Assembly: GCA_934597125.1 (NCBI GenBank)
Contig: CAKTQM010000017.1
Coordinates: forward strand, 1-34,342
DNA from: an uncultured Oscillospiraceae bacterium
GTDB taxonomy: Bacteria > Bacillota > Clostridia > Oscillospirales > Oscillospiraceae
DNA: 34,342 bases
Reading direction: 5' to 3'
Part shown: positions 1-34,342 of the stretch, one piece after another
How the letters are laid out: each line of letters opens with the position of its first letter
Numbering within the stretch: the stretch's first letter is position 1
Notes under the pieces: model-generated
Seen by the model: only the letters and a program-made list of their open reading frames with translations
Database searches by the model: none
Told to the model about the DNA's origin: nothing
Program-made: the position numbers and the translations under genes

Positions 1-74
1 GGGCGTAGCTCATCTGGTAGAGCGCGACCTTGCCAAGGTCGAGGTAGCGAGTTCGAGCCTCGTCGCCCGCTCCA
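1..74 (+). tRNA. tRNA-Gly (GCC), 5' end cut by window edge
   Basis: The D arm, an anticodon stem around TTGCCAA (anticodon GCC), the T arm with GTTCGAGCC, and an encoded CCA at 72-74 are all readable. The 3' acceptor strand CGCCCGC (64-70) needs 5' GCGGGCG, but the window starts at GGGCG, so two 5' bases are missing. The gene is followed directly by a hairpin terminator. Confidence 0.95.
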
Positions 75-3634: not shown

Positions 3635-3672
3635 AAACCCCATGCCGTCCCCTTTCGGGCGGCATGGGGTTT
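3635..3672. terminator. Palindromic terminator at end of pilus operon
   Basis: A perfect 13-bp stem pairs 3635-3647 with 3660-3672 around a 12-base loop, with A/T triplets at the base of the stem. It overlaps the stop codon of the last pilus gene (minus strand). Neither side has a long T run, so termination strength is uncertain. Confidence 0.55.
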
Positions 3673-4252
3673 ATCCCTGCCTGTTTTCTTCCGCCGCGCG
3701 GCACCGCACCGTCACGCGGTTCTGCCCGCCGTAGGTGCAGGTGAACAGCGTCAGCTCCCAGCCGCTGTCGGTCATCTCCGCCACGCTTTCCGGCGCCAGC
3801 GTCTCGATCCGCTCCACCGTGTAGCAGTGGAGCGCTCCCGCACCGTCGGTCAGATACACCGCGTCGCCCTGCCGCAGGCGGCTCAGGCCGCCGAAATGGG
3901 CGGCATAGTTGTGGGCGCCGATAACCAGCCCACCCTCCAGCGAACCGGCATAGCGGGCGGGAGCCGTCTTCAGCCCCTCCATATCCCGCTCCATCCGCAC
4001 CAGAAGCTCCACCCCGATGGCAGGCAGAGACAGAAAGCCGAGATACCGCTCGCCCTCCACCTGTATGCCGCCGTCGTCATCCGCTTCCTGACGGTCACTG
4101 ACGATGGTCTCCGCCATTCGGGTCAGCGTCCTCTGAGCCGCGGCTGCCGCGTTTTCCGCCTGTCTGCGGTTATGCAGTGCCAACAGCGCTGCGCTCAGGA
4201 TACACAGTACCCCCAGCGCCATGCAGACCCAGCCAAGTCTCCGCTTACGCAT
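3671..4252 (-). CDS. Second sortase of pilus locus
   Basis: This 193-aa protein has an N-terminal membrane anchor (about residues 7-26) and a sortase catalytic domain. Expected catalytic residues are His114 in GAHNYA, Cys172 in LFTCTY and an Arg at 179 or 183 in NRVTVR. It lacks the lid and the C-terminal membrane helix of the class C enzyme two genes upstream, so it is a different class (class D-like or housekeeping-like). Its probable role is to join LPXTG proteins, including the finished pilus, to the cell wall; this comes from the location. The gene overlaps the preceding pilin gene by 8 bases and ends the operon in a palindromic terminator. Confidence 0.85.
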   Translation of the reverse strand: MRKRRLGWVCMALGVLCILSAALLALHNRRQAENAAAAAQRTLTRMAETIVSDRQEADDDGGIQVEGERYLGFLSLPAIGVELLVRMERDMEGLKTAPARYAGSLEGGLVIGAHNYAAHFGGLSRLRQGDAVYLTDGAGALHCYTVERIETLAPESVAEMTDSGWELTLFTCTYGGQNRVTVRCRAAEENRQG

Positions 4253-5000
4253 GCGCTTTCCTCCGTGTCAGCCGCGTTCCCAGCGCCAGCAGCCCCATAC
4301 CCGTGACCGTCAGCACCGGCACAGGCCAGCGCAGCTGCCCCGTCTGGGGCAGGCGATTCTCCGGCGTCTCCGGCCGCTCCGGCTGTGGCATGTCAGGCGT
4401 CGGCCTGTCCGGTACGGAGGGCTTTTGCGCGCCGTCAAAGGCCACCTTGGGCTGCGCCACGGCGGCGCTGTTCCACGCCTCATCCTCCAGCGCAGGCACC
4501 GCCGCCAGAAAGGCGGTAAAGGTATACCTCCCCGCCGCCGTCTGCAGCGGGGAAAGCTCCACCAGATACAGCCCCGCCTCCAGAGACGAAAATGCCGCCG
4601 TGCCGCGGCTGTCGGTAACCTGCTCCGCCCGGGGAGGCAGCGAGTGCTGCTCTGCCCAGGCGCTCAGCTCCGTGGCCGCCGCCAGCCATTGTCCGCCGCT
4701 GTCCAGTCCTGTCAGCATCACGCCGCTGCCCATAAATTCCGCCGTCAGCGTATAGGCGGCGCGCTCGTCCACCGCGGCCACGCGGAAGATCCGCGCTGCC
4801 GCGCCGGACAGCGCCCTGTCCTCATACCGGCACTCCAGCCGCAGCGAACACACCGCCGCCGGATCCAGCAGCGGCGTGCCCCACGCCGTGCGCACCAGCG
4901 CCGCCGTCAGCAGCATCGCCAACACCAGCGTCAGTACGCTATTTCGTTGGAAAACTCCGTGTCTCATTCCAATATGCCTTCCGTACAAAAGCCGCGTCAT
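4245..5000 (-). CDS. Small LPXTG pilin, probable basal or minor subunit
   Basis: The 251-aa product has a hydrophobic signal segment (about residues 20-40), a single Ig-like region with SpaA-like strands (RGTAAFSSLEAGLYLVEL near 132-149), a Pro-rich stalk (about 184-216) and the sorting signal LPQTG at 217-221. A membrane segment and RRK tail follow. I start it at the ATG at 5000, whose ATGA overlaps the sortase C stop; the frame stays open upstream only as a shadow of that gene. Short length, Pro-rich tail and single domain resemble basal anchor pilins. The second sortase follows directly. No clear E-box is present, so I infer anchoring rather than polymerising function. Confidence 0.82.
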   Translation of the reverse strand: MTRLLYGRHIGMRHGVFQRNSVLTLVLAMLLTAALVRTAWGTPLLDPAAVCSLRLECRYEDRALSGAAARIFRVAAVDERAAYTLTAEFMGSGVMLTGLDSGGQWLAAATELSAWAEQHSLPPRAEQVTDSRGTAAFSSLEAGLYLVELSPLQTAAGRYTFTAFLAAVPALEDEAWNSAAVAQPKVAFDGAQKPSVPDRPTPDMPQPERPETPENRLPQTGQLRWPVPVLTVTGMGLLALGTRLTRRKAHA

Positions 5001-5833
5001 TCCCTGTCCTTCCGTTTCCGCGCCGCCGCGATGATGAGCACCGCCAGCATCGCGCCGCCTGCCGCCAGCGCAGCCTTGCCCCGCCAACCGAAGCTGTGGG
5101 CCATCTGCTGTACCGGCGTGATCACCGGCGTCTCCTCCGGCACATAGGGCACCCGATGCCCCCGCACCAGCAGCCGGTGGGTATTCACGCCGTAGGGCGT
5201 ACACGTCACCAGCGTTACATAGTCCGCTTCGTTCTCCGGCAGCAGATCCGCCACTTCCGTAGGCTCCACCACCGCAATGCGATCCACCTCATAGGCCAGC
5301 GTCTCATCCAGCACATGCAGGTAAAACCGGTCGCCGCCGACAAGCCGATCCAGATCGGTAAACAGCAGCGCCGTGGGCAGCCCCCGATGGCCGGAAAGCA
5401 CGCAGTGACTGCCCGCTCCTCCCACCGGCAGCGAGGTACCCGCCAGATGGCCGATGCCCCGCTGCAGGGCGTCCTCGCCGGTGCCGTGGTAAACGGGCAG
5501 GCGCACGCCGATCTTGGGAATCTCGATATACCCCATCACGCCGCTGCCGTCCGGATCCAGCAGCGACCAGTAGGGGTCGTCCTGCCCGATCCGGCCTTCA
5601 ATAAACGCATCGTGAAACGTGCTGTCCAGCCCCGCGTTATACTCCCGCGCCGCCTGCCACAGGGCGGAGTGATCCTCCTTCGTCAGCTGTGCCACCGTCT
5701 CCACGTAGGTGCCGATCATAGACTCCTGCCGCCGCTGGTTCCACAAATCGCTGAACGAGGGATACAGCAGCACGGCGAAGCCCACCAGAAACAGCAGCAC
5801 GGGTAAAACGACGCCTGTCAGTTTTTTCTTCAT
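4997..5833 (-). CDS. Class C pilus-polymerising sortase
   Basis: This 278-aa transpeptidase has membrane segments at both ends (about residues 7-24 and 252-270), as class C sortases do. The lid motif DDPYW is at 85-89. The catalytic residues are His149 (LSGHRG), Cys211 (LVTCTPYGVNTHR) and Arg220. It joins the LPXTG threonine of one pilin to a lysine of the next. I start it at the ATG at 5833, preceded by GGGAGG, rather than an upstream TTG at 5908 whose extra 25 residues are not sortase-like. A 13-bp hairpin separates it from the major pilin gene. The stop overlaps the next pilin start. Confidence 0.93.
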   Translation of the reverse strand: MKKKLTGVVLPVLLFLVGFAVLLYPSFSDLWNQRRQESMIGTYVETVAQLTKEDHSALWQAAREYNAGLDSTFHDAFIEGRIGQDDPYWSLLDPDGSGVMGYIEIPKIGVRLPVYHGTGEDALQRGIGHLAGTSLPVGGAGSHCVLSGHRGLPTALLFTDLDRLVGGDRFYLHVLDETLAYEVDRIAVVEPTEVADLLPENEADYVTLVTCTPYGVNTHRLLVRGHRVPYVPEETPVITPVQQMAHSFGWRGKAALAAGGAMLAVLIIAAARKRKDRE

Positions 5834-5861
5834 ACCGCGCCTCCCGCCGCCCTGCTTCCCT

Positions 5862-5891
5862 CCGGCGGGAGAGAAGCGTCTCTCCCGCCGG
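5862..5891 (-). promoter_or_regulatory. Intercistronic hairpin between pilin and sortase C genes
   Basis: A perfect 13-bp GC-rich stem pairs 5862-5874 with 5879-5891 around a 4-base loop. It lies in the 78-bp gap between the major pilin stop and the sortase C start. There is no T run after it. It may protect the upstream pilin message or partly stop transcription, giving much pilin and little sortase. Confidence 0.6.
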
Positions 5892-5911
5892 TCATTGTCC
5901 TGTGTCAAGTT

Positions 5912-7558
5912 TTAGCGTTCCTTGTTCTTGCGCCGCAGCACCAGAAAGGCCGCCGCCACCATGATGGCGATACCCGCCACGGTAAACGCCACCGTACCCA
6001 CACCGCCAGTGCTGGGCAGCACAGGGGTGGTGCTGTTTTTCAGTTTCACATGATATTCGAAAGCGTTCGGTTCACCAACGCCTCGGGTCAGAATCAACCC
6101 TGCATCTGTCTCCTCATTCACGGCCTCAAAGGTGCTTTGACCGCCGCCCACCAGATTGCCGGTGTGCTTATCCTCATCGGACACTTCCGACACCAGCGTC
6201 AGCTTAAACATGCCGGCAGGGGAAAAATAGCCGGTAGGAACAGTGGACTCCTCAAGGTACCACTCTCCGATACCCAGGCCACGAATCACAAAGTCCGCGG
6301 GGATCTCATCAACCACACCCTCATCTCCGGCCCTTGCCACACAGTAGTCACCGCTCGTCTCCAAAGCGACAAACTGCAGCGGCTGCTGCTTTTTCTCATC
6401 TTTATAGACCTTAAACTTCGCGCCGGTCAAAGGTGTATTGATATCCCCCGCCTTTTTCTCTAATCTCAGCGCATAATTGTACACCGTCGTCGTCTGCGGA
6501 TCGGTAGTCTGTGTCAGTGCGCTGGTGGCATCTGCAAAGGTCAGTGTGGCGGTATTGACCGCCTTGTGGGCAGTAAGCGCTGCAGGCGTTACCTCCGCCT
6601 CATAATACAGCCACACCTGTTTGGCTGTCTCTATCGGCATCAGCGCAGTATAGTTCAGCACAAAGTGCAGCGTACCATCTTCATCCGTCCCGGTAGGTTC
6701 CGCCACAGCCTCCTCGATCAGCGCATTCTCATTAGGTTCGGCGCCAGTAATTTCCTGCTCATATACCTTGGCAGAACCGTCCACATAAGACAGGCCCTTC
6801 ATCTTGTCATTTACCGTCAGCTTTAACGCACTGACAGAAGTATACTTGGGCAGGTCAATGCGGACATAGTATTTGGCGATCTCGCCCACGCCCACATCAG
6901 CGGTTTCTCCCCACTGCTCATCTCTCACGCACCACACCCGCTTGATCATACTGGGGCCATCCACGCTTTTTGCGTTGACCGCAATCTTGTTGTCCTCCCG
7001 CACCTCCTGGCCGGCGCCGCCGCCGGCATACACGATCAGTTTGCCGGCATTCACACGTACAAACACCGTAATGGGCTGATAGATCTTGTTGTTGACCGTG
7101 GTGGTCGTCGGCACGATCAGATAGTAGCCAGGCTCCAGCTCCACATCCGCAGAAGTTCCGTCTACTGTGACTTTTTTGTACTCCTTGTCCGGCAGAGAAT
7201 ACCCGCTGTCTGCTGTATTGCACCGGCCGACAAAGTCCTCGATCAACTTGGTCACATTGGCAGATTGACCAGCAAAATAACTGCCGATATCGCCCTGATA
7301 GTCAGCGCCCGCCTTTTCTTTCAGGAACTTCTCAAAATTCTCCTCATATTCATAGTTCGTATACTTGTCAATGTACTTCACCAACTGATACACCACCGCC
7401 GTGTCGCCGTTGTTCACGTCGTTGATGGTGATGGTGGCCGTTTCCATGTCCTCCGTCGTCGGGGCAGCCGCTTCCGTCGCCCAGGCGCTTGCCCCCAGGG
7501 ACAATGTCAGCACCAAAGCCAGTGCCAGCGCTGTCAATCGCTTCGTCAATTGTCTCAT
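5912..7558 (-). CDS. Major pilin (isopeptide-forming backbone subunit)
   Basis: The 548-aa precursor has a signal peptide (about residues 1-27, cleavage after AWA), an N-terminal pilin domain (about 40-180), a middle isopeptide-type domain (about 200-360) and a C-terminal SpaA/Cna-B domain (about 362-482). The latter has an E-box, WYLEESTVPTGY near 433-444. The sorting signal LPSTG is at 514-518, followed by a membrane helix and RRKNKER. Lysines near 188-206 are candidates for sortase linkage. AAAGGAG lies just before the ATG at 7558; the longer open frame upstream is not pilin-like. It lies between the tip adhesin and sortase C, as expected for the polymer-forming subunit. Confidence 0.93.
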   Translation of the reverse strand: MRQLTKRLTALALALVLTLSLGASAWATEAAAPTTEDMETATITINDVNNGDTAVVYQLVKYIDKYTNYEYEENFEKFLKEKAGADYQGDIGSYFAGQSANVTKLIEDFVGRCNTADSGYSLPDKEYKKVTVDGTSADVELEPGYYLIVPTTTTVNNKIYQPITVFVRVNAGKLIVYAGGGAGQEVREDNKIAVNAKSVDGPSMIKRVWCVRDEQWGETADVGVGEIAKYYVRIDLPKYTSVSALKLTVNDKMKGLSYVDGSAKVYEQEITGAEPNENALIEEAVAEPTGTDEDGTLHFVLNYTALMPIETAKQVWLYYEAEVTPAALTAHKAVNTATLTFADATSALTQTTDPQTTTVYNYALRLEKKAGDINTPLTGAKFKVYKDEKKQQPLQFVALETSGDYCVARAGDEGVVDEIPADFVIRGLGIGEWYLEESTVPTGYFSPAGMFKLTLVSEVSDEDKHTGNLVGGGQSTFEAVNEETDAGLILTRGVGEPNAFEYHVKLKNSTTPVLPSTGGVGTVAFTVAGIAIMVAAAFLVLRRKNKER

Positions 7559-7586
7559 ACGCTTCTCCTTTAATGAAAATATCTCT

Positions 7587-10500
7587 CTATTTTCCTCCGG
7601 CCGCCGGATGTCTACACTTTTGCCGCCACAGCAGCCACACGGCGGCGCACAGCAGAGCCATGCCCACCACGGCGGAGCCGCAAGCGCCCCACCCGCCGGT
7701 GGCGGGCAGATACGGCAGCGCCTCATCCGTCACCGTCAGCACATAGCTCCCGTCGCCGTACTCCGTCAGCCGCCATCCCGCGTCGGGATAAGGGGTCAAC
7801 TGGCTCAGCCGCCCGTTGCTGATCCGGAAGCGGAAGGTCTCCTCCCGCATCCGATAACCCTGGGGCGCGGTGGTCTCCCGCAGCTCGTAATCGCCGGAGG
7901 CCAGACCGGTTATCACCACCGTGCCGTCATCGCCCACAGTATGGGCGTTCTCCAGTTCCTCCCGCTCATCCTCCGGCACGTCGCCGGTACGCCGCAGCGT
8001 AAATACCGCACCTGTCAGCCGCGCGCCGCCCTCGCTGTACTTCTCCAGCGTCAGGGAGACACTGCTCTCGTTGATGATCTGATGTACGTCGCCGCCGGTG
8101 CCGCCCAGCAGGGTAATGTGTGCCTTTCCGGCGTGGATAGTCACGCGGTACACACTCTCATGCAGGGCAAATCCCCGCGGCGCGCCGGTCTCCTTCAAGT
8201 AGTACACACCGGCCACGCGGCCATCGAACCGCACAAAGCCGTCGTCGTTGGACGTCGCCGTGTCGACGGCGGAGTCCTCTGTGCAGGAGGGGTCGGTATA
8301 CAGGGTAAACACCGCGCCGGCCACCGGCGCGCCGCTGTCACTGACCTTGGCGAAGGCGATCACACCCGTCAGTACCTCGTTGTTCACCACCAGCAGCACG
8401 TGATCGGCATAGTGAATGGTGCCGTCGGCGGCCTCCCACATGGCGTCCAGACCGGTCTTTTGTGTGGCGCTCTCAGAATACAGCGGCTGATCATAGGTCA
8501 CCAGATAGTTGTCATAGCCGTCGTCGATGGCAGGATCATACGCCACGTCGCCGATCCGCAGCTCCCGCAGGCTGTACTGGGCCGCCTGTCCGTCCACAAA
8601 CAGCGGCAGATCCGTCCAGGTGTGCCGCCAGCCGTTCTCCTGGCTCAGCACCGCCTCATAGGCCTTTTCGTCATTGCCCTGGCCCACCATTTTCACGCCG
8701 TTGCGGTACAGCGCCACCGTCACCGGCTGCTTCTCCCGCTCATAGGCCGCGCCCCAGTTTTTGCGGGCTGTGACCTCTGTCAGCAGGCGGGACTCATTTT
8801 TCAGCGTCAGCATCTTCGTACCCAGACCCGACGCCCACTTCCCCGCGGCCGCGCCGTCCTCCTGCAGGGAGGTCACGGTGCCGCTGCCGTCCACGGTGAA
8901 GCGTATCCGCTCCGGCCCGTAGTAGCCGCTGGGGATCGTCTCCTCCAGCGTATAGCGCCGCCCATCCGCCGCCAGTTTCAGATAAAAGTACCCGTTGGGG
9001 CCGGATCTCACAATGTTGTCCGTCACCCGCTCGGTATACCCCTCCTCCTGTTCCGAGGTGGTATATTCATTGGTGCCCGGCTTTTTGTATATCACCAGCG
9101 CCGTCTCGCTCTCATGGCGCAGCCGGAAGGCCACATCCCGCAGTCCGTTGCCGGTGTTTCCGTCCAGCTTGGCCACCGTCAGCAGCCCCGCCTTCACATA
9201 GACGTTCTGCAGCGCCACCGTCTGCACGGCGTTGTCCGGCACATCGCTGGCATAGGAGGCCACCGTCACGTACACGCCCTCCCCGTCGGGGTCGTCCACC
9301 CAGCCGCCTGTCTGGGCGGCGGAGTTGGTGATGGCATAGCGGGCGGTGTAATTCACGCCCTCCGTTGGCTCGGCGCAATGCTCCTGTACATGATAGGTTT
9401 GCTCCTGCCGCCCCAGCAGCGTCCAGCTGTAGGTGTCGCTGTCCGGATCGTAGCTGGTGTAGCCGGTAAAGCCCTCCCGCGTCTCCTGTGCCGCCGGAAG
9501 CAGCGACAAATCATAATCCAGCGTCTCATCATTGCCGGCGGCGGACTGGTGCTTCACGCTGATGTAAAAGTCTCTGGCCTTCACCGCCGCGATGGCGTCC
9601 GCGTCTCCGGCAAAGGTCTTTTTCACCACCAGCCGGCCTTCTCGGGCCACCAGCACGCCATCAATATGAAAGCCGTCGCTCTCCTCATATTTCAGCACAT
9701 ACCAGCGGATGGTAAAGTGATCGCTGGTCAGATACCGCTTGTCGATCTCCATGCCGTCGATATTGATGGTATAGCCGCCATTTCGGATAACCTCAAAGAT
9801 TGCCTCATCGGACGGAAACGTTTCCAGTGACAAATTTTTATAGGGTGTGGTGGTCAGCTTCCGCAGCTCACTGTCTACCACATAGGCGGTGTCGCTGGCC
9901 TGAGGCGGCGCAATGACCAGCGCATCCTCCAGCTGCTCCGCTCCCCGCACGCGGCTGAAAGCCAGTGAATCGGTAAAATTGCTCTGAGGCTGCGAGGCAA
10001 AGCCGTTGGACATGTTGTCCGCGATCTCGCAGTTCAGGCTGACAAAGAAGTTCGCCGTCTCGATCTGTGTAGTGTTGTCGGCAAAGGGTGTCCACACCGC
10101 CGTCAGCGTGATCTCCTGTGTTACAGGATCCATGTACTGGCTCAGCTCATCCATAGCCATGCCCCTGCCGGGCTGCACCACAAGCGTTGTTTCGCCCACC
10201 CGCCATCCGGTAAACCGGTACACAAAGCGGCGGCTGTGGGCGTTGCTGCTGACCAGCTTCGTTGCGCTCCGGTCATTGTCCGGCGACAGGACGGTGTACC
10301 GCTGCTGCCCCTCCTCACAGGGATCATAATATGTCAGTCCACCCCGCACCGAGCCGTCTATGACAACGCTCTGCTCCGAGGCCTTCAACTGGCTGCTCAG
10401 ATCCACCAGCGACGCCGCCAGCCCCGCCTTATACACCACTACCGTCTGATTGCGGTAGGCGGAGAAGCAATAGGGGCGGTCAGCTGCGTCCACCGTATAG

Positions 10501-11582
10501 GTGACCGTCCGGGCCGCGGCGTTCTCCACGCCCGCCAGCGCCAGCACCTCGCCAGTCAGTGTATCCGTCACCACCCAGCGGAACGCATCGGTCAGGGGCA
10601 GTGTCACGGAGAAGGGTTGTCCGTTCAAAATGTACCGCGTCTCCGGCAGGTCATCGGTGATCACGCCGCTGTAATCCTCCGCACTGACGCTGTAAAAGTT
10701 GTTCTGCGCCAGCAGTGTGGTGTCGGCAAGCAGCTTGCTGCCGGTAAAATACGCGCTGTACCCCGGCAGATTGCAGGGTGTATAGTACACCGAATTCGAC
10801 GCGCGTCCAGGCTCGCCCAGCGGGATCCACCAGCCGTCCGTGTCATTCGCCACAGGGGCTGTGTCCGCCCAGATCCTCCCCCGCGTCTCCGCGCTGTCCA
10901 AATGGGGGAAGAACCGCTGGCCCTGATAGTCCTCCGCCCAAAATCCATAATCACCGTAGACCTCCGCTACCTCCGCCAGCGTCAGGTAATAGCGCTCTTT
11001 TCCAAACACTACGCTGGTTTTGCTGACAGCCTTCTGTTCTATCTGCGTCCACTGGCCGTCAACGACGGCATAGAAATACACCGTGGTAGCGGCGGCATAT
11101 CCCGCCGTGGCCGCGTACAGCTCCAGCGCTTCCGTCACCGCCTCCGCCAGGTCATAGGGCGTCTGCGCCCCTTCTTCGTCCAGCGTGTACCAGTCGTAGG
11201 CCACGGCCCATTCCGCCGCGCCCTCCTCATCGTCTGTCTCCGCCATGTCGTACAGCGCGGCTTCACCCAGCGCCTCCGCCACACTGCCGCCCGCGGAAAC
11301 GGCCAGTTCCAGCACCTCCCCACCATCGTCAGACGGCAGATGCAGCCGTACAGGATACGTCTCCCGCTCCTCCGCAGCAGGAGATTCCGCCGCGTCCGGC
11401 TCCAGCTCCGCCGCCCATACTGCCGGCTCCAGCGCCGTACCAAACAGGCTGAAAAAAACACCGATCAGAACGAGTATCGTAAGCCCCTGCCTACCCAGCC
11501 GTCCCGCCATAGGACGCAGCCTTTTCGTTCTTCCGGTGTGTTGATTCTGCGTTTTTGTATGTCTCGTGTCCGTCCGGTTCAT
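7587..11582 (-). CDS. Large LPXTG pilus tip adhesin
   Basis: The 1331-aa product starts with a long charged N-terminus before the signal helix (about residues 33-57). A large N-terminal region (about 75-640) has no domain I can name and probably binds the target. After it come repeated Cna-B/SpaA domains at about 650-795, 800-930, 935-1070, 1072-1172 and 1175-1285. Three clear E-boxes are visible: YTLEETIPSGY near 877, YLKETGAPRGF near 1128 and YELRETTAPQGY near 1232. LPATG is at 1292-1296, with a membrane helix and positive tail. GGGGAGAACG precedes the ATG. As the first and largest gene of the operon it fits the tip adhesin; its ligand is unknown. Confidence 0.9.
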   Translation of the reverse strand: MNRTDTRHTKTQNQHTGRTKRLRPMAGRLGRQGLTILVLIGVFFSLFGTALEPAVWAAELEPDAAESPAAEERETYPVRLHLPSDDGGEVLELAVSAGGSVAEALGEAALYDMAETDDEEGAAEWAVAYDWYTLDEEGAQTPYDLAEAVTEALELYAATAGYAAATTVYFYAVVDGQWTQIEQKAVSKTSVVFGKERYYLTLAEVAEVYGDYGFWAEDYQGQRFFPHLDSAETRGRIWADTAPVANDTDGWWIPLGEPGRASNSVYYTPCNLPGYSAYFTGSKLLADTTLLAQNNFYSVSAEDYSGVITDDLPETRYILNGQPFSVTLPLTDAFRWVVTDTLTGEVLALAGVENAAARTVTYTVDAADRPYCFSAYRNQTVVVYKAGLAASLVDLSSQLKASEQSVVIDGSVRGGLTYYDPCEEGQQRYTVLSPDNDRSATKLVSSNAHSRRFVYRFTGWRVGETTLVVQPGRGMAMDELSQYMDPVTQEITLTAVWTPFADNTTQIETANFFVSLNCEIADNMSNGFASQPQSNFTDSLAFSRVRGAEQLEDALVIAPPQASDTAYVVDSELRKLTTTPYKNLSLETFPSDEAIFEVIRNGGYTINIDGMEIDKRYLTSDHFTIRWYVLKYEESDGFHIDGVLVAREGRLVVKKTFAGDADAIAAVKARDFYISVKHQSAAGNDETLDYDLSLLPAAQETREGFTGYTSYDPDSDTYSWTLLGRQEQTYHVQEHCAEPTEGVNYTARYAITNSAAQTGGWVDDPDGEGVYVTVASYASDVPDNAVQTVALQNVYVKAGLLTVAKLDGNTGNGLRDVAFRLRHESETALVIYKKPGTNEYTTSEQEEGYTERVTDNIVRSGPNGYFYLKLAADGRRYTLEETIPSGYYGPERIRFTVDGSGTVTSLQEDGAAAGKWASGLGTKMLTLKNESRLLTEVTARKNWGAAYEREKQPVTVALYRNGVKMVGQGNDEKAYEAVLSQENGWRHTWTDLPLFVDGQAAQYSLRELRIGDVAYDPAIDDGYDNYLVTYDQPLYSESATQKTGLDAMWEAADGTIHYADHVLLVVNNEVLTGVIAFAKVSDSGAPVAGAVFTLYTDPSCTEDSAVDTATSNDDGFVRFDGRVAGVYYLKETGAPRGFALHESVYRVTIHAGKAHITLLGGTGGDVHQIINESSVSLTLEKYSEGGARLTGAVFTLRRTGDVPEDEREELENAHTVGDDGTVVITGLASGDYELRETTAPQGYRMREETFRFRISNGRLSQLTPYPDAGWRLTEYGDGSYVLTVTDEALPYLPATGGWGACGSAVVGMALLCAAVWLLWRQKCRHPAAGGK

Positions 11583-12667: not shown

Positions 12668-13345
12668 ATGTCCCGAACCCTCATATTGGAGACGCCCTCC
12701 GCCATCTCCGTAAAGCAGGCCGCCCGCTATCTGGGCGCTCATGGCGCGCCGGATGCCGCTACGGCGGCGCTGCTGCAGCGCTGCGCTCCGCCCCTGCTGC
12801 AAGCCGCCACGCCCCGCGCCGTCTGGCTGCTGTGCGGTACAGACGAATTGGACACCGCCGGTATTCTGCAGGGCGAGGACATCCGCCGCCACCTGACGGA
12901 CTGTCCGCAGGCCCTGCTGCTGGCGGTGACGCTGGGGCCCATGGCGGACGCCTGCATCCGCCGCGCCGCCGTGGGCGATGTGGCCGCCGGCGCGGCCACG
13001 GACGCTCTGGCCTCCGCGCTGGCGGAGCAGACAGCGGATCAGGCGGAGGCGCAGCTTCGCCAATGGGCCGCCGGACAAGGTCTTTTCCTCACCGGACGCT
13101 TTTCCCCCGGTTACGGCGACTGGCCCATCACCGTGCAGCCCCTGCTGGCGGCGGCGCTGGACACCCCGCGCCAGATCGGCCTGTATGTGACCGACAGCTA
13201 TTTAATGACACCCCGAAAAAGTATCACTGCTCTGCTGGGCGTCAGCCGCCATCCCGTCAGCGGACAGCTGGCGGGATGCGGCCACTGCGCCCTGCGCCAT
13301 CGATGCGATTATCGAAAGAGAGGGATCACCTGTGCAGATCAATGA
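12668..13345 (+). CDS. MetH reactivation (activation-domain) protein
   Basis: The 225-aa protein corresponds to the C-terminal activation domain of long MetH enzymes, encoded as its own gene. It holds the SAM-binding type motif RFSPGYGDWPI near 143-153 and YLMTPRKSITALLGV near 178-192. These regions support reductive methylation of oxidised cob(II)alamin with SAM. The C-terminus has a Cys cluster, CGHC...C...C near 204-221, common in clostridial stand-alone versions and possibly binding a metal or Fe-S centre. The stop overlaps the metH start by 14 bases, so the two are probably translated together. Confidence 0.88.
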   Translation: MSRTLILETPSAISVKQAARYLGAHGAPDAATAALLQRCAPPLLQAATPRAVWLLCGTDELDTAGILQGEDIRRHLTDCPQALLLAVTLGPMADACIRRAAVGDVAAGAATDALASALAEQTADQAEAQLRQWAAGQGLFLTGRFSPGYGDWPITVQPLLAAALDTPRQIGLYVTDSYLMTPRKSITALLGVSRHPVSGQLAGCGHCALRHRCDYRKRGITCADQ

Positions 13346-15761
13346 CCTTTTCACCCAACCCCATACCCTTCTGCTGGACGGCGGCATGGGCACCATGCTG
13401 CAGGCCGCCGGTCTCCAACTGGGCGCCCGTCCCGAGGAACTGAACATCACTGATCCGGACGCCATCACCCGTATCCACAGCCTGTACGCCGCGGCGGGCA
13501 GTCGCATCATCAACACCAACACCTTCGGCGCCTCCGCCCACAAGCTGGCCAAAAGCCCCTATACCGTGGAGCAGGTCATCGCCGCGGGCGTTGCCTGCTG
13601 CAAAAAGGCCTGCGCCCCCTACGGCGCCTTGACCGCCCTGGACATTGGCCCCTTAGGCGAGCTGCTGGAGCCCAACGGCACCCTGCCCTTTGAAACCGCC
13701 GTGGCGGAATATGCCCGCATCGTCCGTGCCGGCATGGCCGCCGGCGCGGATCTGGTGGTGGTGGAGACTTTTACCGACCTGTACGAGCTGAAGGCCGCCC
13801 TGCTGGCGGTCAAGGAGAACTGCGATCTTCCCGTGCTGGCCAGCATGAGCTTCGAGGCACGGGGCCGCACCTTTACCGGCTGCACGGTGGAGAGCTTTGC
13901 CGCCACCGCCCGCGGCCTTGGCGCCGACGCACTGGGCATCAACTGCTCTCTCGGCCCCCAGGAGATCTTCCCCATGGCAAAACGCCTGGCCGAAGCCCTG
14001 CCCGGCGACTTCCCCGTATTCGTCAAGCCCAACGCGGGCCTGCCCCGTGCCGACGGCAGCGGCTACGATATCACGCCGGAGCTGTTCGCCCGGCAGATGG
14101 CCCCCTACCGTGACCTGGGTCTCTTCGCCGCCGGCGGCTGCTGCGGCACCACACCGGATTTTATCCGCCTGCTGAATGATGTGTTCCGCGACTGCGTGCC
14201 CGGGCGTCCCGCCCATCCCATGCCCTCGGTGATCTGCTCTCCCGTGGCGTGCGTCACCATCGACGGTGTCACCGTGGTAGGGGAGCGCATCAACCCCACG
14301 GGGAAGAAGCGTTTCCAGCAGGCCTTGCTGCAAAACGACATGGATTACGTGCTGGAGCAGGCCGTCTCCCAGGCCGAGGCAGGCGCACAGCTTCTGGACG
14401 TCAACGTGGGCGCCCCCGAGGTCGACGAACCCGCCATGCTGGAGCAGGTGGTCAAAACCCTGCAAAGCGTAGTCAGCCAGCCCCTGCAATTGGACTCCAC
14501 CAACTTTGAAGCTCTGGAGCGTGCCCTGCGGGCCTACAACGGCAAGCCCATCGTCAACTCCGTCAACGGCGCGCCCGCCGTGCTGGAGCACGTTCTGCCC
14601 CTGTGCAAAAAGTACGGCGCGGCGGTCATCGGCCTGACGGTGGACGGCGCGGGCGTCCCTTCCGGCGCGGAGGAGCGGGTTGCCATCGCCCGCCACATCC
14701 GCGACGCGGCGCTGGACGCCGGCATCCCTCTGGAGGATATCTACATCGACTGTCTGGCCCTGACCGCCAGCGCCCAGCAGGAGGATGCCCTGTCCGCCGT
14801 AACGGCCCTGGAGCGCTGCAAAAAGGAGCTGGGCGTGCGCACTATTCTGGGGGTGTCCAACATCAGCTTCGGCCTGCCCTGCCGGGCCTATCTGAACACC
14901 ATTTTCCTGACGCTGGCTATTCACGCGGGACTGGATCTCGCCATCATGGATCCCGCCAGCCAGGAGATGATGGCCGCCATCTACGCCTACAACGTCCTGT
15001 CCGGCCGTGATAAACAGTGCGCCGCCTATGTAGAGCGCTACGCAGGCCGCGTCCCCACCTCCACCGCACTGGCAAAGATCATGCAAAGCGCCTCCACCGG
15101 CGGCGTGCCCTGCGGTGTCGGCGCCAACGCCGCCTACGCCCCTCTGATGAAAGCCGTGGAGCAGGGTCTCAAGGGCGAGGCCGCCTCCGCCGCCCGCGCC
15201 CTGCTGCGGGAGAGGGAACCCCTTGAGCTGGTGGATGACGCCCTGATCCCCGCGCTGGACGCGGTGGGCGCCAAATACGAAAACGGCACCCTGTTCCTTC
15301 CCCAGCTTCTGCAGGCCGCCAGTGCCGCACAAAGCGCCTTTGACGAGGCCAAGACCGCCATTGCCCAGCGGGGCGGCAGCGGCACCGGCAAGGGCCGCAT
15401 CGTTCTGGCTACCGTCCACGGCGATGTTCACGACATCGGCAAGAACATCGTCAAGGTCATTCTGGAAAACTACGGTTTTGAGATCATCGACCTGGGCCGC
15501 GATGTGCCGGTGGATGCGGTAGTCCGCGCCGTGCGGGACAGGGATGTTCACCTGGTGGGCCTCTCCGCCCTGATGACCACCACTCTGAAAAGCATGGAGG
15601 AGACCATTTCCGCCCTGCGGGCGGCGCACCTCCCCTGCAAAATCATGGCCGGCGGCGCGGTGCTGACGCCGGAATACGCCAAAAAGATCGGCGCGGACTA
15701 CTACGCCAAGGACGCCAAGCAAAGCGCCGACATCGCCAAAAGCTTTTTCAGCGTCGGCTGA
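13332..15761 (+). CDS. metH: Cobalamin-dependent methionine synthase, three-module form
   Basis: This 809-aa enzyme makes methionine from homocysteine and methyltetrahydrofolate. The homocysteine domain (about 1-285) has the zinc ligands Cys205 and Cys270-Cys271 (GGCCGTTPD). A pterin-binding domain (about 290-565) contains VGERINPTGKKRF. A cap (about 590-680) and B12-binding domain (about 685-809) follow, with D698-x-H700-x-x-G703 in DVHDIGKN, His700 being the lower cobalt ligand. The reactivation domain of the E. coli enzyme (1227 aa) is absent and supplied by the preceding gene. The start is GTG at 13332, after GAGAGGGA. A sensor kinase gene begins 24 bp downstream. Confidence 0.95.
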   Translation: MQINDLFTQPHTLLLDGGMGTMLQAAGLQLGARPEELNITDPDAITRIHSLYAAAGSRIINTNTFGASAHKLAKSPYTVEQVIAAGVACCKKACAPYGALTALDIGPLGELLEPNGTLPFETAVAEYARIVRAGMAAGADLVVVETFTDLYELKAALLAVKENCDLPVLASMSFEARGRTFTGCTVESFAATARGLGADALGINCSLGPQEIFPMAKRLAEALPGDFPVFVKPNAGLPRADGSGYDITPELFARQMAPYRDLGLFAAGGCCGTTPDFIRLLNDVFRDCVPGRPAHPMPSVICSPVACVTIDGVTVVGERINPTGKKRFQQALLQNDMDYVLEQAVSQAEAGAQLLDVNVGAPEVDEPAMLEQVVKTLQSVVSQPLQLDSTNFEALERALRAYNGKPIVNSVNGAPAVLEHVLPLCKKYGAAVIGLTVDGAGVPSGAEERVAIARHIRDAALDAGIPLEDIYIDCLALTASAQQEDALSAVTALERCKKELGVRTILGVSNISFGLPCRAYLNTIFLTLAIHAGLDLAIMDPASQEMMAAIYAYNVLSGRDKQCAAYVERYAGRVPTSTALAKIMQSASTGGVPCGVGANAAYAPLMKAVEQGLKGEAASAARALLREREPLELVDDALIPALDAVGAKYENGTLFLPQLLQAASAAQSAFDEAKTAIAQRGGSGTGKGRIVLATVHGDVHDIGKNIVKVILENYGFEIIDLGRDVPVDAVVRAVRDRDVHLVGLSALMTTTLKSMEETISALRAAHLPCKIMAGGAVLTPEYAKKIGADYYAKDAKQSADIAKSFFSVG

Positions 15762-19884: not shown

Positions 19885-19907
19885 CGGTTTTCCCGTCAGT
19901 CTTTTTT
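19874..19907. terminator. Bidirectional terminator between RHH gene and aroE
   Basis: GACTGACGG (19879-19887) pairs with CCGTCAGTC (19893-19901), with an A run on the left and a T run on the right. The stem contains the stop codon of the ribbon-helix-helix gene and the T run meets the aroE stop, so it serves both converging genes. Confidence 0.92.
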
Positions 19908-20640
19908 ACTCCGTAAACAGCGCAAACGCCAGCTCCGCCTGGGCATGCAGCAGCGCCAGCCCGCCGATGACCGGCAGTCCCCGCTGCCGCGCCGCCGCCA
20001 GCAGCGCCGTCTCCCGGGGTTGATATACCAGATCGTATACCAACGCATGGCAGTCGTCCAAAAAAACGAAACCGTCAAACGCCTCCTGCCCCGTCATGCC
20101 CAGCGGCGTGGCATTCACCAGCACGTCACATTCCGCCGCCAGTCGCGGCAGCTCCCGCCACAGGCGGGCCGTCACGCCCCAGCCCTCCGTCTTCTCCGGA
20201 TGGCGGCAGCACACTGTCACGCGGCCCCCCGTGTTAACCACGGCGCGGCTCACCGCCGATGCCGCGCCGCCGCTGCCCAGCACCAGCACCCGCTTGTCCG
20301 CCGCCCCTCCTGGCAGCGTAGCCACAAAACCCGGGCCGTCCGTGTTGTAGCCGGTGGCCCGTCCCTGCCGCACCACCACGGTGTTCACTGCGCCCATGGC
20401 CGCCGCATCCTCCGCCACCGCGTCCAGCAGCGGCAGAATTGCCTGCTTGTGGGGCATGGTCACATTAAATCCGTCATAGGCGCCCGCACGGGCACGCTTC
20501 ACAAACTCCGCCAGCTCCTCCGGCCGGACTGTCACCGTCTCATAGACCCCCTCCATCCCCCGCTGCCGCAGCAGCGCGGTGTGGATGGCCGGCGACCGGC
20601 TGTGTGCCACCGGATCCCCAATCACGCATAGTCTGTACAT
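19906..20640 (-). CDS. aroE: Shikimate dehydrogenase
   Basis: This 244-aa enzyme reduces 3-dehydroshikimate to shikimate with NADPH. The substrate site is shown by HSRSPAIH near 13-20, the catalytic Lys65 in NVTMPHK, Asn86 and Asp101 (GYNTDGPGF). The nucleotide-binding loop GSGGAAS is at about 122-128. It is shorter than the usual roughly 270-290 aa but keeps all key sites. It is the last gene of the aromatic operon, starting 10 bp after aroQ behind an AAAGGAG site, and ends in a bidirectional terminator. Confidence 0.95.
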   Translation of the reverse strand: MYRLCVIGDPVAHSRSPAIHTALLRQRGMEGVYETVTVRPEELAEFVKRARAGAYDGFNVTMPHKQAILPLLDAVAEDAAAMGAVNTVVVRQGRATGYNTDGPGFVATLPGGAADKRVLVLGSGGAASAVSRAVVNTGGRVTVCCRHPEKTEGWGVTARLWRELPRLAAECDVLVNATPLGMTGQEAFDGFVFLDDCHALVYDLVYQPRETALLAAARQRGLPVIGGLALLHAQAELAFALFTE

Positions 20641-20650
20641 GATTTCTCCT

Positions 20651-21094
20651 TTACACAGATTGCCGTACCACGCTCTCCAGCAGATCTATCGCCCGCAGAT
20701 AGCCGTTAAAGCCCTGTCCGGAGATCATCTCCACACAGGCAGGCGCCGTCACCGATACCCGCCGCCACGGCTCACGGCTGGCGATGTCGGTAATGTGTAC
20801 CTCCACTGCCGGCACACTCACCGACCGCAGCGCATCGTGGATGGCGTAGCTGTAGTGGGCGTAAGCCCCCGGATTCATGACGATACCCTCCGTACCGTCC
20901 TCCCCCGCCTGCTGAATAGCGTCGATCAGCACCCCCTCGTGATTAGACTGCACAAAACGGGCCTGATGCCCGCGGGACTGGGCGTAGTCCGCCGCCAGAC
21001 GGCACAGCTCGGCATAGGTGCCCCGTCCGTACAGCTCCGGCTCCCGCTGCCCCAACAGATTCAGATTGGGGCCATTCACGATCAATAGCTTCAT
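20651..21094 (-). CDS. aroQ: Type II 3-dehydroquinate dehydratase
   Basis: The 147-aa enzyme dehydrates 3-dehydroquinate to 3-dehydroshikimate. It is the type II (dodecameric) form, seen from the N-terminus LLIVNGPNLNLLGQREPELYG with catalytic Tyr22, NPGAYAHYS with Asn74 and His80, and VEVHITDI with His100. The start ATG at 21094 overlaps the shikimate kinase stop (ATGA); the longer open frame before it is only the shadow of that gene. The aroQ name here means the dehydratase, not the unrelated chorismate mutase type also called AroQ. Confidence 0.95.
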   Translation of the reverse strand: MKLLIVNGPNLNLLGQREPELYGRGTYAELCRLAADYAQSRGHQARFVQSNHEGVLIDAIQQAGEDGTEGIVMNPGAYAHYSYAIHDALRSVSVPAVEVHITDIASREPWRRVSVTAPACVEMISGQGFNGYLRAIDLLESVVRQSV

Positions 21095-21582
21095 CCGTTC
21101 CTCCAAAGCCCGGCGATCTCCGCCGCCAGTTCCTCCGCCGTGCCGCCGCTTACCACGGCGTCGGCACATTCCTCATACCAGCCCCGCCGCTCCTGCGCCA
21201 GCTGCATCAGAGTATACCGCTTCAGCAGCGGGCGCTCCCGATTTTCCACACAGGCGGCAATATCGCGGATATTTCGATCCAAAAACACCACCATGCCGCT
21301 GCTTTTCAGCAGCTTTCTGTTTTCCTCCGCCACCACGGCGCCGCCGCCGGTGGCGATCACACACTCCCCGCCGCCGCACAGCCGCCGCAGAATACGGCTC
21401 TCCGCCGCGCGGAAATCCTCCTCACCCCGCTGGGCAAAGAGAGCGGGGATAGTCATGTCTTCCTCCCTCTCGATCTCCGTGTCACAGTCAAAGAAGGGCA
21501 AACCCAGCCGTCGGGCCGCCAGCCGGCCCACGGTGGTCTTGCCGCTGCCGGGCAGACCAATCAGGATCAGGCGGCGGCTCAT
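21091..21582 (-). CDS. aroK: Shikimate kinase
   Basis: This 163-aa kinase phosphorylates shikimate at the 3-hydroxyl. The P-loop GLPGSGKTT is at residues 9-17. Asp34 in FDCDTEIE and Arg58 in EEDFRAAE are the expected shikimate contacts, and ATGGGAVV (77-84) is the typical central motif. A lid Arg lies in NRERPLLKR. The length is normal. Both ends overlap the neighbouring genes by four bases, so translation is coupled to the chorismate synthase-mutase upstream. Confidence 0.95.
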   Translation of the reverse strand: MSRRLILIGLPGSGKTTVGRLAARRLGLPFFDCDTEIEREEDMTIPALFAQRGEEDFRAAESRILRRLCGGGECVIATGGGAVVAEENRKLLKSSGMVVFLDRNIRDIAACVENRERPLLKRYTLMQLAQERRGWYEECADAVVSGGTAEELAAEIAGLWRNG

Positions 21583-22787
21583 TCCTCCACCTCACGGGTC
21601 TGGGCCATGATAGTCTGGAACACCGCCTCAATGGCGGCGCGGTATTCCGGCGCCATGTCGCCGCGGCTTCGCAGCACCTCCCATTCCCGCGTTTTATCCC
21701 GTATTTCGGCCCCCATTTCGGCCTTTAATGTACCAATTTTGCCCCCTATTTGCAGGCGTTTTACCAATAAGTCGACAATTTCACCATCAATTTTATCTAT
21801 TTCGCTTCGATATCCCTCCAGATTTTCCTCCGGCGCCTCCTGCCACAGCTGGCACACCGCCAGCGCCACAGCCGCCTCCACAATAGGCGCGGCCCGCAGG
21901 GCGATGCAGCTGTCATGCCGTCCGGCAGCGGACAGCGTCACATTTTCCATCCGCGCCAGATCCACCGTTTCCTGCGCTTTGCCGATGGTGGGCGTGGGTT
22001 TGAAGGTCACTGTAAGCGTCACCGGCATACCGTTGGTAATGCCGCCGTTGATGCCGCCGTTGTGGTTGCTCTCCGTCCACACCGTTTTGCCGTCAGTCCG
22101 CAGCGGATCGTTGGCCTGGCTGCCCCGCAGAGCGGCAAAGCTCTCCCCTGCACCGAAGCCCACCGCCTTCACGCCCGGGATGGCGAACACATGGCGCGCA
22201 ATCTCGCTTTCCACTGCGTCGTACCAGTCCGGCCCGCCCAGTCCGGCGGCAAGGCCGCTGACGGTGCAGACGATCTGTCCGCCCACACTGTCGCCCTCCG
22301 CCTTTGCCGCGGCGGCGCGGCGGCGCAGAGCCTCCTCATCCACCACGTGGGCCGATACCGTGATACCCTGACAGGCCAGCGCCGTTTTGGCAATGCTTCC
22401 CGCCGCCGTCAGCGGCGCGGTCAGCCGTCCGGAGAAGTGTCCGCCGCCCCGATAGTCCTGAAAGCCCTTCGCCTTTACATGGGCGGTATAATCCGCGTGC
22501 CCGGGCCGCGCCACTGTCCGCAGCGCTTCATAATCCTGCGGCCGCGCGTCCTGATTGTCAATCACCATCACCAGCGGCATGCCGGTGGTATAGCCCTGCC
22601 ACACACCAGAGAGAAAACGCACCTGATCCCCCTCCTGTCGGGCGGTGGACAGTCCGCCGCCGCTGCGGCGGCGCAGCAGATCCCGCTCCATTTGCAGCGC
22701 GTCCACCGGAAGGCCCGCCGGAACATGCCGCAGCAGTATCCCCACCACCGGCCCGTGGGATTCGCCAAACAGCGTATAATCCATCAT
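21579..22787 (-). CDS. aroC: Chorismate synthase fused to chorismate mutase
   Basis: The first about 320 residues are chorismate synthase, which turns EPSP into chorismate using reduced FMN. It has FGESHGP at 7-13, RRRSGGGLSTARQEGD, GGGHFSGRLTAPLTAAG and the late RHDSCIALRAAPIVEA. Residues about 324-402 form an all-helical AroQ-class chorismate mutase, converting chorismate to prephenate. The active-site pattern is complete: Arg of YRSEIDKID, Arg of VKRLQ, Lys of GTLK, Asp/Arg/Glu of RDKTREWE and Gln of FQTIM. The start at 22787 follows AGCGGAGG. The DNA at 21721-21780 is 40% GC, against 73% at 22261-22320, so the mutase part looks foreign. The stop overlaps aroK. Confidence 0.93.
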   Translation of the reverse strand: MMDYTLFGESHGPVVGILLRHVPAGLPVDALQMERDLLRRRSGGGLSTARQEGDQVRFLSGVWQGYTTGMPLVMVIDNQDARPQDYEALRTVARPGHADYTAHVKAKGFQDYRGGGHFSGRLTAPLTAAGSIAKTALACQGITVSAHVVDEEALRRRAAAAKAEGDSVGGQIVCTVSGLAAGLGGPDWYDAVESEIARHVFAIPGVKAVGFGAGESFAALRGSQANDPLRTDGKTVWTESNHNGGINGGITNGMPVTLTVTFKPTPTIGKAQETVDLARMENVTLSAAGRHDSCIALRAAPIVEAAVALAVCQLWQEAPEENLEGYRSEIDKIDGEIVDLLVKRLQIGGKIGTLKAEMGAEIRDKTREWEVLRSRGDMAPEYRAAIEAVFQTIMAQTREVEE

Positions 22788-34238: not shown

Positions 34239-34270
34239 AAAAAACACCACCCATTGGGTGGTGTTTTTTT
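34239..34270. terminator. Bidirectional terminator between GNAT gene and tRNA-Lys
   Basis: CACCACCC (34245-34252) pairs with GGGTGGTG (34256-34263), with an A run before and seven Ts after. It ends the GNAT transcript and, on the other strand, the tRNA-Lys transcript. Confidence 0.92.
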
Positions 34271-34342
34271 GGTGCCCCGTCGGGGATTCGAACCCCGGAC
34301 ACCCTGCTTAAAAGGCAGGTGCTCTACCGACTGAGCTAACGG
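34270..34342 (-). tRNA. tRNA-Lys (TTT), 5' end cut by window edge
   Basis: On the minus strand the anticodon loop reads CTTTTAA (anticodon TTT), flanked by CCTGC/GCAGG stems. D and T arms are standard and CCA is encoded at 34272-34270. The 3' acceptor strand ACGGGGC requires 5' GCCCCGT, and only CCGT is present, so three 5' bases lie beyond the window. Confidence 0.95.

What the first reader, a model, noticed from the sequence alone, without database searches (positions are those of the whole stretch)
21579..22787. Chorismate synthase and chorismate mutase in one polypeptide
The C-terminal about 79 residues of the chorismate synthase form a complete AroQ-class chorismate mutase, with all the expected active-site residues. 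Mutase fusions to DAHP synthase, prephenate dehydratase or dehydrogenase are well known; fusion to chorismate synthase joins the last common step to the first branch step and could channel chorismate to phenylalanine and tyrosine.
Basis: partly seen in the sequence, partly recalled or inferred. Interest (0 to 1): 0.8.

Follow-up and report, generated by a model that had tools for sequence, protein, structure and literature searches.

The report
Chorismate synthase–mutase fusion lacking known partners
In a group of Clostridia one gene appears to join the enzyme that makes chorismate to the enzyme that starts the route to phenylalanine and tyrosine, yet related genomes seem to lack the known enzymes that would use its product, so something unrecognised may do so.

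Summary
The fusion is real. On the minus strand, 21579-22787 encodes one 402-residue protein: a full chorismate synthase (CS) followed by a full AroQ-type chorismate mutase (CM), in an aroB-aroA-aroC::CM-aroK-aroD(II)-aroE gene order. The window and 8 species genomes form one clade of CS-CM fusions (SH-aLRT 98.6). Unfused relatives mostly have aroC followed by a CM-prephenate dehydratase-ACT gene (pheA), so the fusion looks like the CM end of pheA left behind and joined to aroC. The sister genome G041 has a free CM there and no dehydratase, suggesting the dehydratase went first. The 8 also lack TrpE/PabB/MenF-type enzymes and MqnA, so the fused CM is the only chorismate consumer found. Yet DAHP synthase (7 of 8) and the aro genes persist, and six catalytic CM residues are invariant in 53 of 53 aligned fusions. 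Best reading: an active bifunctional enzyme that ends the recognised pathway at prephenate, whose consumer is unidentified. Activity is untested.

The parts
21579..22787 (-). aroC::CM fusion gene, 402 aa, chorismate synthase plus chorismate mutase
   Evidence: open frame; PF01264 and PF01817; close homologues of about 401-404 aa start at the same place
21834..22787 (-). chorismate synthase domain, residues 1-318
   Evidence: PF01264, TIGR00033 over cut-off; Foldseek matches to solved chorismate synthases
21582..21812 (-). AroQ-type chorismate mutase domain, residues 326-402
   Evidence: PF01817 1-80/80; three helices 323-358, 365-378, 380-401, block pLDDT 79-89 over 321-340 and 94-97 after 340; Foldseek 1ybz TMt 0.89 (E 3.1e-3), 1ecm TMt 0.78 (E 3.4e-2)
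21091..21582 (-). aroK, shikimate kinase; its ATG overlaps the TGA stop of the fusion (ATGA)
   Evidence: PF01202; sequence
20651..21169 (-). type II 3-dehydroquinate dehydratase (ORF; true start probably further in)
   Evidence: PF01220 from residue 27
19906..20640 (-). aroE, shikimate dehydrogenase
   Evidence: PF08501, TIGR00507
22792..23928 (-). aroA, EPSP synthase
   Evidence: PF00275
23925..24977 (-). aroB, 3-dehydroquinate synthase
   Evidence: PF01761, TIGR01357

Best explanation
The gene encodes a bifunctional enzyme: the N-terminal domain makes chorismate from EPSP and the C-terminal AroQ domain turns it into prephenate. It arose inside the aro operon. The ancestor had aroC followed by pheA (CM-dehydratase-ACT); the dehydratase and ACT parts were lost, the CM remained as a free gene (as in sister genome G041), and it was then joined in frame to aroC once, before the clade diversified. 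Shown: the fusion, one fused clade on the CS tree, its place in the gene order, conservation of six catalytic CM residues, and no hit for the known prephenate and chorismate consumers searched in 8 relatives. Inferred: both domains are active, and prephenate is used by an enzyme not homologous to PDT or TyrA, or turns slowly and spontaneously into phenylpyruvate that is transaminated to phenylalanine.
For: Domains and fold. Residues R11, R28, K39, D48, R51, E52 (E. coli numbers, recalled) are invariant in 53 of 53 aligned fusions; 13 of 81 CM columns are invariant, so all six falling there by chance is P about 5e-6, while the CM domain averages 53% pairwise identity against 72% for CS. Gene order: window and 8 fused genomes have aroB-aroA-aroC::CM-aroK-aroD-aroE; 7 of 8 unfused comparison genomes carry PDT-ACT downstream of aroC. 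CM lies within 700 bp downstream of aroC in 53 of 62 unfused loci in which a CM was found (of 85 unfused loci). The 9 fused CS domains form one clade, SH-aLRT 98.6, and G041 joins them at 99 (quick method). G041 has a free 89-aa CM, PF01817 59.6 bits. PF00425: 0 of 8 fused. PF02621: 0 of 8. DAHP synthase: 7 of 8. Spontaneous prephenate dehydration as a possible cause of slow E. coli delta-pheA growth: PMC11535334 (passages).
Against: No activity data. Position 84 varies (S 28, T 22, A 2, M 1) and 88 is Q 29 / E 24; from recall, Glu at 88 favours acidic pH, so the window's enzyme might be weak at neutral pH. A product with no identified consumer is odd. Completeness of these genomes is not reported (shown as '-'); G310 lacks a DAHP synthase hit. 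G041 is one genome and lacks a DAHP synthase hit too, so the order 'loss, then fusion' rests on it alone; it also has a hexapeptide-repeat gene between aroC and CM. The CM-domain tree does not confirm one origin: two Mailhella CMs fall among the fused ones on a long branch, so the fused label needs two changes.
Confidence: 0.6

Rival explanations
1. One reading: the fusion channels chorismate to prephenate for ordinary phenylalanine and tyrosine synthesis by prephenate dehydratase and TyrA.
For: The fused activities are consecutive and the domains look complete.
Against: 0 of 8 fused genomes have PF00800 and 0 of 8 have PF02153 over cut-off, including G131 with a 2.55 Mb contig. 11 of 12 distinct unfused genomes have both (the PDT match of G007 is partial); all 14 control genomes ring in these calls.
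Confidence: 0.07
2. The CM domain is no longer used as an enzyme but as a ligand-sensing or oligomerisation module that regulates or stabilises chorismate synthase, as CM domains regulate some DAHP synthases.
For: No downstream enzyme found; positions 84 and 88 drift. CM domains acting as regulators are known for DAHP synthase (recalled; a Geobacillus DAH7PS-CM structure with prephenate, 5j6f, is among the fold matches).
Against: Six charged catalytic residues stay invariant in 53 of 53 aligned fusions while the rest diverges; G041 keeps a free CM with these residues and no fusion partner.
Confidence: 0.15
3. A decaying pathway: the bacteria take Phe and Tyr (and Trp) from their surroundings, and the aro genes with the CM are a remnant on the way out.
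For: PDT, TyrA and PF00425 enzymes are all without a hit over cut-off in 8 of 8 fused genomes.
Against: aroB, aroA, aroC::CM, aroK, aroD and aroE are found in 8 of 8 fused genomes' loci (aroE cut by a contig end in G318, CM of G131) and DAHP synthase in 7 of 8, across fusions down to 57% identical to the window. A relic would not be expected to keep its catalytic residues.
Confidence: 0.15
4. Assembly or sequencing artefact joining two genes.
For: None specific to the fusion; two metagenome proteins with aroK sequence appended look like deletion or frameshift.
Against: 116 of 120 listed homologues carry both domains; 8 separate genomes show the fusion without a stop.
Confidence: 0.01

Closest known systems
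PheA P-protein (CM-prephenate dehydratase-ACT)
   Same: AroQ CM at the same place in the gene order; probable source of the domain
   Different: Here no dehydratase or ACT part; CM is C-terminal to chorismate synthase
AroQ-TyrA T-protein and other AroQ fusions (PMC1173090, passages read)
   Same: AroQ CM fused to another aromatic-pathway enzyme; that paper links such fusions to neighbouring genes
   Different: Here the partner is the enzyme upstream of CM, not the one that uses prephenate
DAHP synthase-CM fusions (e.g. Geobacillus 5j6f, B. subtilis 5gmu)
   Same: AroQ domain on a common-pathway enzyme
   Different: From recall, there CM sits on the first pathway enzyme, usually N-terminal, and is regulatory; here it is C-terminal on the last
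Monofunctional chorismate synthase AroC
   Same: PF01264, matches solved CS structures
   Different: Carries an extra CM domain; no solved chain matched both halves

Membership tests
AroQ-class chorismate mutase (PF01817) | Full-length profile match over cut-off | tested here: met
   65.2 bits, cut-off 27, 1-80/80
AroQ-class chorismate mutase (PF01817) | Eight E. coli active-site residues (recalled) | tested here: inconclusive
   6 of 8 identical; S84 to Thr397, Q88 to Glu401
AroQ-class chorismate mutase (PF01817) | Three-helix fold | tested here: met
   helices 323-358, 365-378, 380-401 in a predicted model; AroQ chains in the Foldseek list at probability 1.00 though E above 0.001
AroQ-class chorismate mutase (PF01817) | Intertwined dimer and mutase activity | not testable with these tools
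   monomer model only
Named NCBIfam CM subfamilies | Score over a subfamily cut-off | tested here: not met
   best TIGR01808 48.2 against 52.15
Chorismate synthase (PF01264) | Profile and equivalog match over cut-off | tested here: met
   339.8 bits; TIGR00033 316.5 against 212.2
Chorismate synthase (PF01264) | EPSP-to-chorismate activity with reduced FMN | not testable with these tools
   needs assay
P-protein (CM-PDT) | PDT domain PF00800 | tested here: not met
   absent from the protein and from 8 of 8 fused genomes

The most novel reading that the evidence does not exclude
In this clade the recognised shikimate pathway ends at prephenate, made by a CS-CM fusion, and a prephenate-consuming enzyme or route unrelated to prephenate dehydratase, TyrA and PheC remains to be found in these Clostridia.
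Probability: 0.4. Interest if true: 0.8.

Novelty: new variant of a known kind. Interest (0 to 1): 0.62.

Why it matters
Fusions of chorismate mutase to other aromatic-pathway enzymes are well known, but I found no report of one with chorismate synthase (searches, open-access PMC papers only). More important, the clade keeps the steps to prephenate while showing no hit for the users of chorismate and prephenate that I searched. That is a specific, testable gap in aromatic amino acid metabolism, relevant to predicting which amino acids such bacteria need.

Tried and rejected
PheC-type cyclohexadienyl dehydratase (a binding-protein fold, recalled): PF00497 was searched in 4 of the 8 fused genomes (G001, G002, G131, G310), 18 matches. 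Of the 15 loci examined (L199-L201 were left out there), 14 have an ABC permease beside the match and the fifteenth (L198) is a sensor kinase with two binding-protein stretches, so no orphan candidate was seen. This argues from neighbourhood only, and the other four genomes were not searched.

Menaquinone by futalosine (MqnA): no hit in 8 of 8 fused (4 of 14 control genomes ring). UbiC and chorismatases were not searched.

A divergent TyrA in G131: the sub-cut-off PF02153 hit is glycerol-3-phosphate dehydrogenase.

Clues from DAHP synthase neighbourhoods in seven fused genomes: no obvious aromatic partner, judged by eye from ORF starts, not by family scan; one neighbour in G001 is a 3-hydroxyacyl-CoA dehydrogenase. 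In G307 the gene lies on the same contig as the operon, some kilobases downstream. Among the 8 fused operon loci no non-aro ORF was shared by more than two (the mechanical ORF choice can miss genes). No T-box or other riboswitch reached threshold in the window, the fused operon loci or the DAHP synthase loci (only tRNAs), nor in the unfused loci (one ribosomal-protein leader).

Further independent CS-CM fusions: not seen on the CS tree, but other phyla were not searched for them. One search sampled 300 genomes of one family group and its match list is cut off.

Internal promoter in the AT-rich part: none by consensus scan. Unusual synonymous conservation between window and G001: none.

A second genus-level search returned the same 32 genomes as and added nothing.

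Full report
What is there. The gene lies on the minus strand; the plus-strand frame at these coordinates is broken by stops. The start at 22787 is preferred over a 25-residue upstream extension because close homologues of about 401-404 aa begin at the same place. Pfam gives PF01264 and a full PF01817 match. NCBIfam places the first part as chorismate synthase over cut-off, and the second as CM without passing any named CM subfamily. An AlphaFold model from 53 sequences (mean pLDDT 72.8; parts of the CS domain are poor, with 79 residues under 50) shows the CM as three helices, block pLDDT 79-89 over residues 321-340 and 94-97 after that. Foldseek lists chorismate synthases first (28 matches at E up to 0.001), then AroQ mutases (1ybz, 5go2, 2d8d, 1ecm) at E 0.003-0.05 with probability 1.00. 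The PDB search by sequence found chains for each half and none matching both.

Active site. Using the E. coli PheA CM sequence and numbering from memory, the window has the R11, R28, K39, D48, R51 and E52 equivalents (Arg327, Arg344, Lys355, Asp364, Arg367, Glu368), Thr397 for S84 and Glu401 for Q88. In 53 aligned fusions the six charged residues are invariant; position 84 is S 28, T 22, A 2, M 1 and position 88 is Q 29, E 24. These 53 are the window protein and 52 of the 116 two-domain homologues, chosen for spread; proteins without a CM match were not included, so the count says nothing about CM loss. The CM part diverges faster than the CS part (mean pairwise identity 53% against 72%), so the retained residues point to selection on ligand binding or catalysis.

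Distribution. In one search, 116 of the 120 homologues listed carry both domains (the four others are 322-333 aa and were not examined). With the G131 protein as query, 118 of 120 listed carry both. Among the best 80 genome-contig loci, 3 are fused (L001-L003), from records titled uncultured Clostridia bacterium (two) and Candidatus Cacconaster stercorequi (one). In a sample of 300 genomes of one family group, 267 had a match and three uninterrupted fusions headed the list, which is cut off. A group of 32 genomes gave eight: G001, G002, G003, G043, G131, G307, G310, G318.

Origin. In the unfused comparison genomes the order is aroB-aroA-aroC-[CM-PDT-ACT]-aroK-aroD-aroE, with exceptions: in G210 the last three genes are rearranged; in G156 about 530 bp lie between aroC and CM; in G041 aroB was not seen and PDT-ACT is absent. 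In the 9 fused loci it is aroB-aroA-aroC::CM-aroK-aroD-aroE (BLAST showed the CM in 8 of the 9; in G131 the profile and Pfam showed it). A CM was found in 62 of 85 unfused loci (each locus is a limited stretch); in 53 of the 62 it starts within 700 bp downstream of aroC, and in 15 (14 distinct sequences) it is in the same frame behind exactly one stop. On a tree of 94 CS domains the 9 fusions form one clade (SH-aLRT 98.6, quick method, midpoint root) with G041 joining them at 99. G041 has a free CM gene of 89 aa with the six charged residues intact, behind a hexapeptide-repeat gene, and no PDT or TyrA hit. The simplest history is loss of the dehydratase, a free CM, then fusion. The CM tree, with few columns and long branches, neither confirms nor excludes this: two Mailhella CMs fall among the fused ones.

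What uses the product. PF00800: 0 of 8 fused, 7 of 8 unfused in the same call, plus 4 of 4 further unfused genomes (the G007 match covers half the profile). PF02153 over cut-off: 0 of 8 fused, 7 of 8 unfused, plus 4 of 4. The exception both times is G041. PF00425 (TrpE, PabB, MenF and kin): 0 of 8 fused, 0 in G041, 0 in unfused G206, 1 each in G212 and G156; 14 of 14 controls ring. So loss of PF00425 enzymes is not confined to the fused clade. PF02621: 0 of 8 fused. CM is single in G001-G003 by PF01817; in the other five the P0001 search gave one place each. DAHP synthase: 7 of 8 fused, no hit in G310 or G041. G131's main contig is 2,553,728 bases in a genome listed as 2.6 Mb, so incompleteness does not easily explain its absences; for the other genomes it may contribute. 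Thus the recognised route runs to prephenate and stops. A PheC-like enzyme was not seen in the four genomes examined.

Interpretation. I think it most likely that both activities are real and that prephenate is consumed by something these families do not recognise, or dehydrates spontaneously. PMC11535334 (passages read) reports that an E. coli delta-pheA control grew over extended time and names spontaneous dehydration, favoured at low pH, as a possible cause. A regulatory or structural role for the CM and a decaying pathway are the serious rivals.

Literature. Searches over open-access PMC papers gave no report of a CS-CM fusion in their listings; two searches found no paper at all. I read passages of PMC1173090 (AroQ and AroF fusions to TyrA; 12 of 22 and 12 of 14 places shown), PMC7311316, PMC5897657, PMC11535334 and PMC11334427 (nothing relevant). 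Absence there is weak evidence: subscription journals are mostly not held, gene names differ between authors, and the two-domain architecture is already visible in precomputed Pfam domains.

Noticed in passing
window 21711-21824 (-), start of the CM domain: The first 38 CM codons are strikingly AT-rich (GC3 0.37 against 0.77 in the CS part and 0.74 in the rest of CM), also in G001 (0.37) but not in the other seven fused genomes (0.53-0.79). Unexplained.
   Followed up: partly
proteins P0124 and P0128 (metagenomic): P0124 runs from CS through a shortened CM into shikimate kinase; P0128 looks like aroK read in another frame after the CM. Probably deletion or frameshift near the ATGA overlap.
   Followed up: partly
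window 3671-11582: Two sortase-domain proteins beside LPXTG and SpaA/Cna_B-type surface proteins: a pilus-like cluster.
   Followed up: no
window 13332-15761: MetH-like protein with homocysteine, pterin and B12 domains and no other Pfam match (E up to 1e-5) in the 809-aa ORF; also downstream of aroE in G001.
   Followed up: no
L166 10057-10974 (G001): An EamA-family transporter sits between aroD and aroE in G001 only, among the 17 loci compared.
   Followed up: partly
window 1-71 and 34270-34342: tRNA genes lie at both ends of the window, the right one tRNA-Lys.
   Followed up: no
G206 (unfused): Has PDT and TyrA but no PF00425 hit, so lack of TrpE/PabB-type enzymes is not confined to the fused clade.
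   Followed up: no
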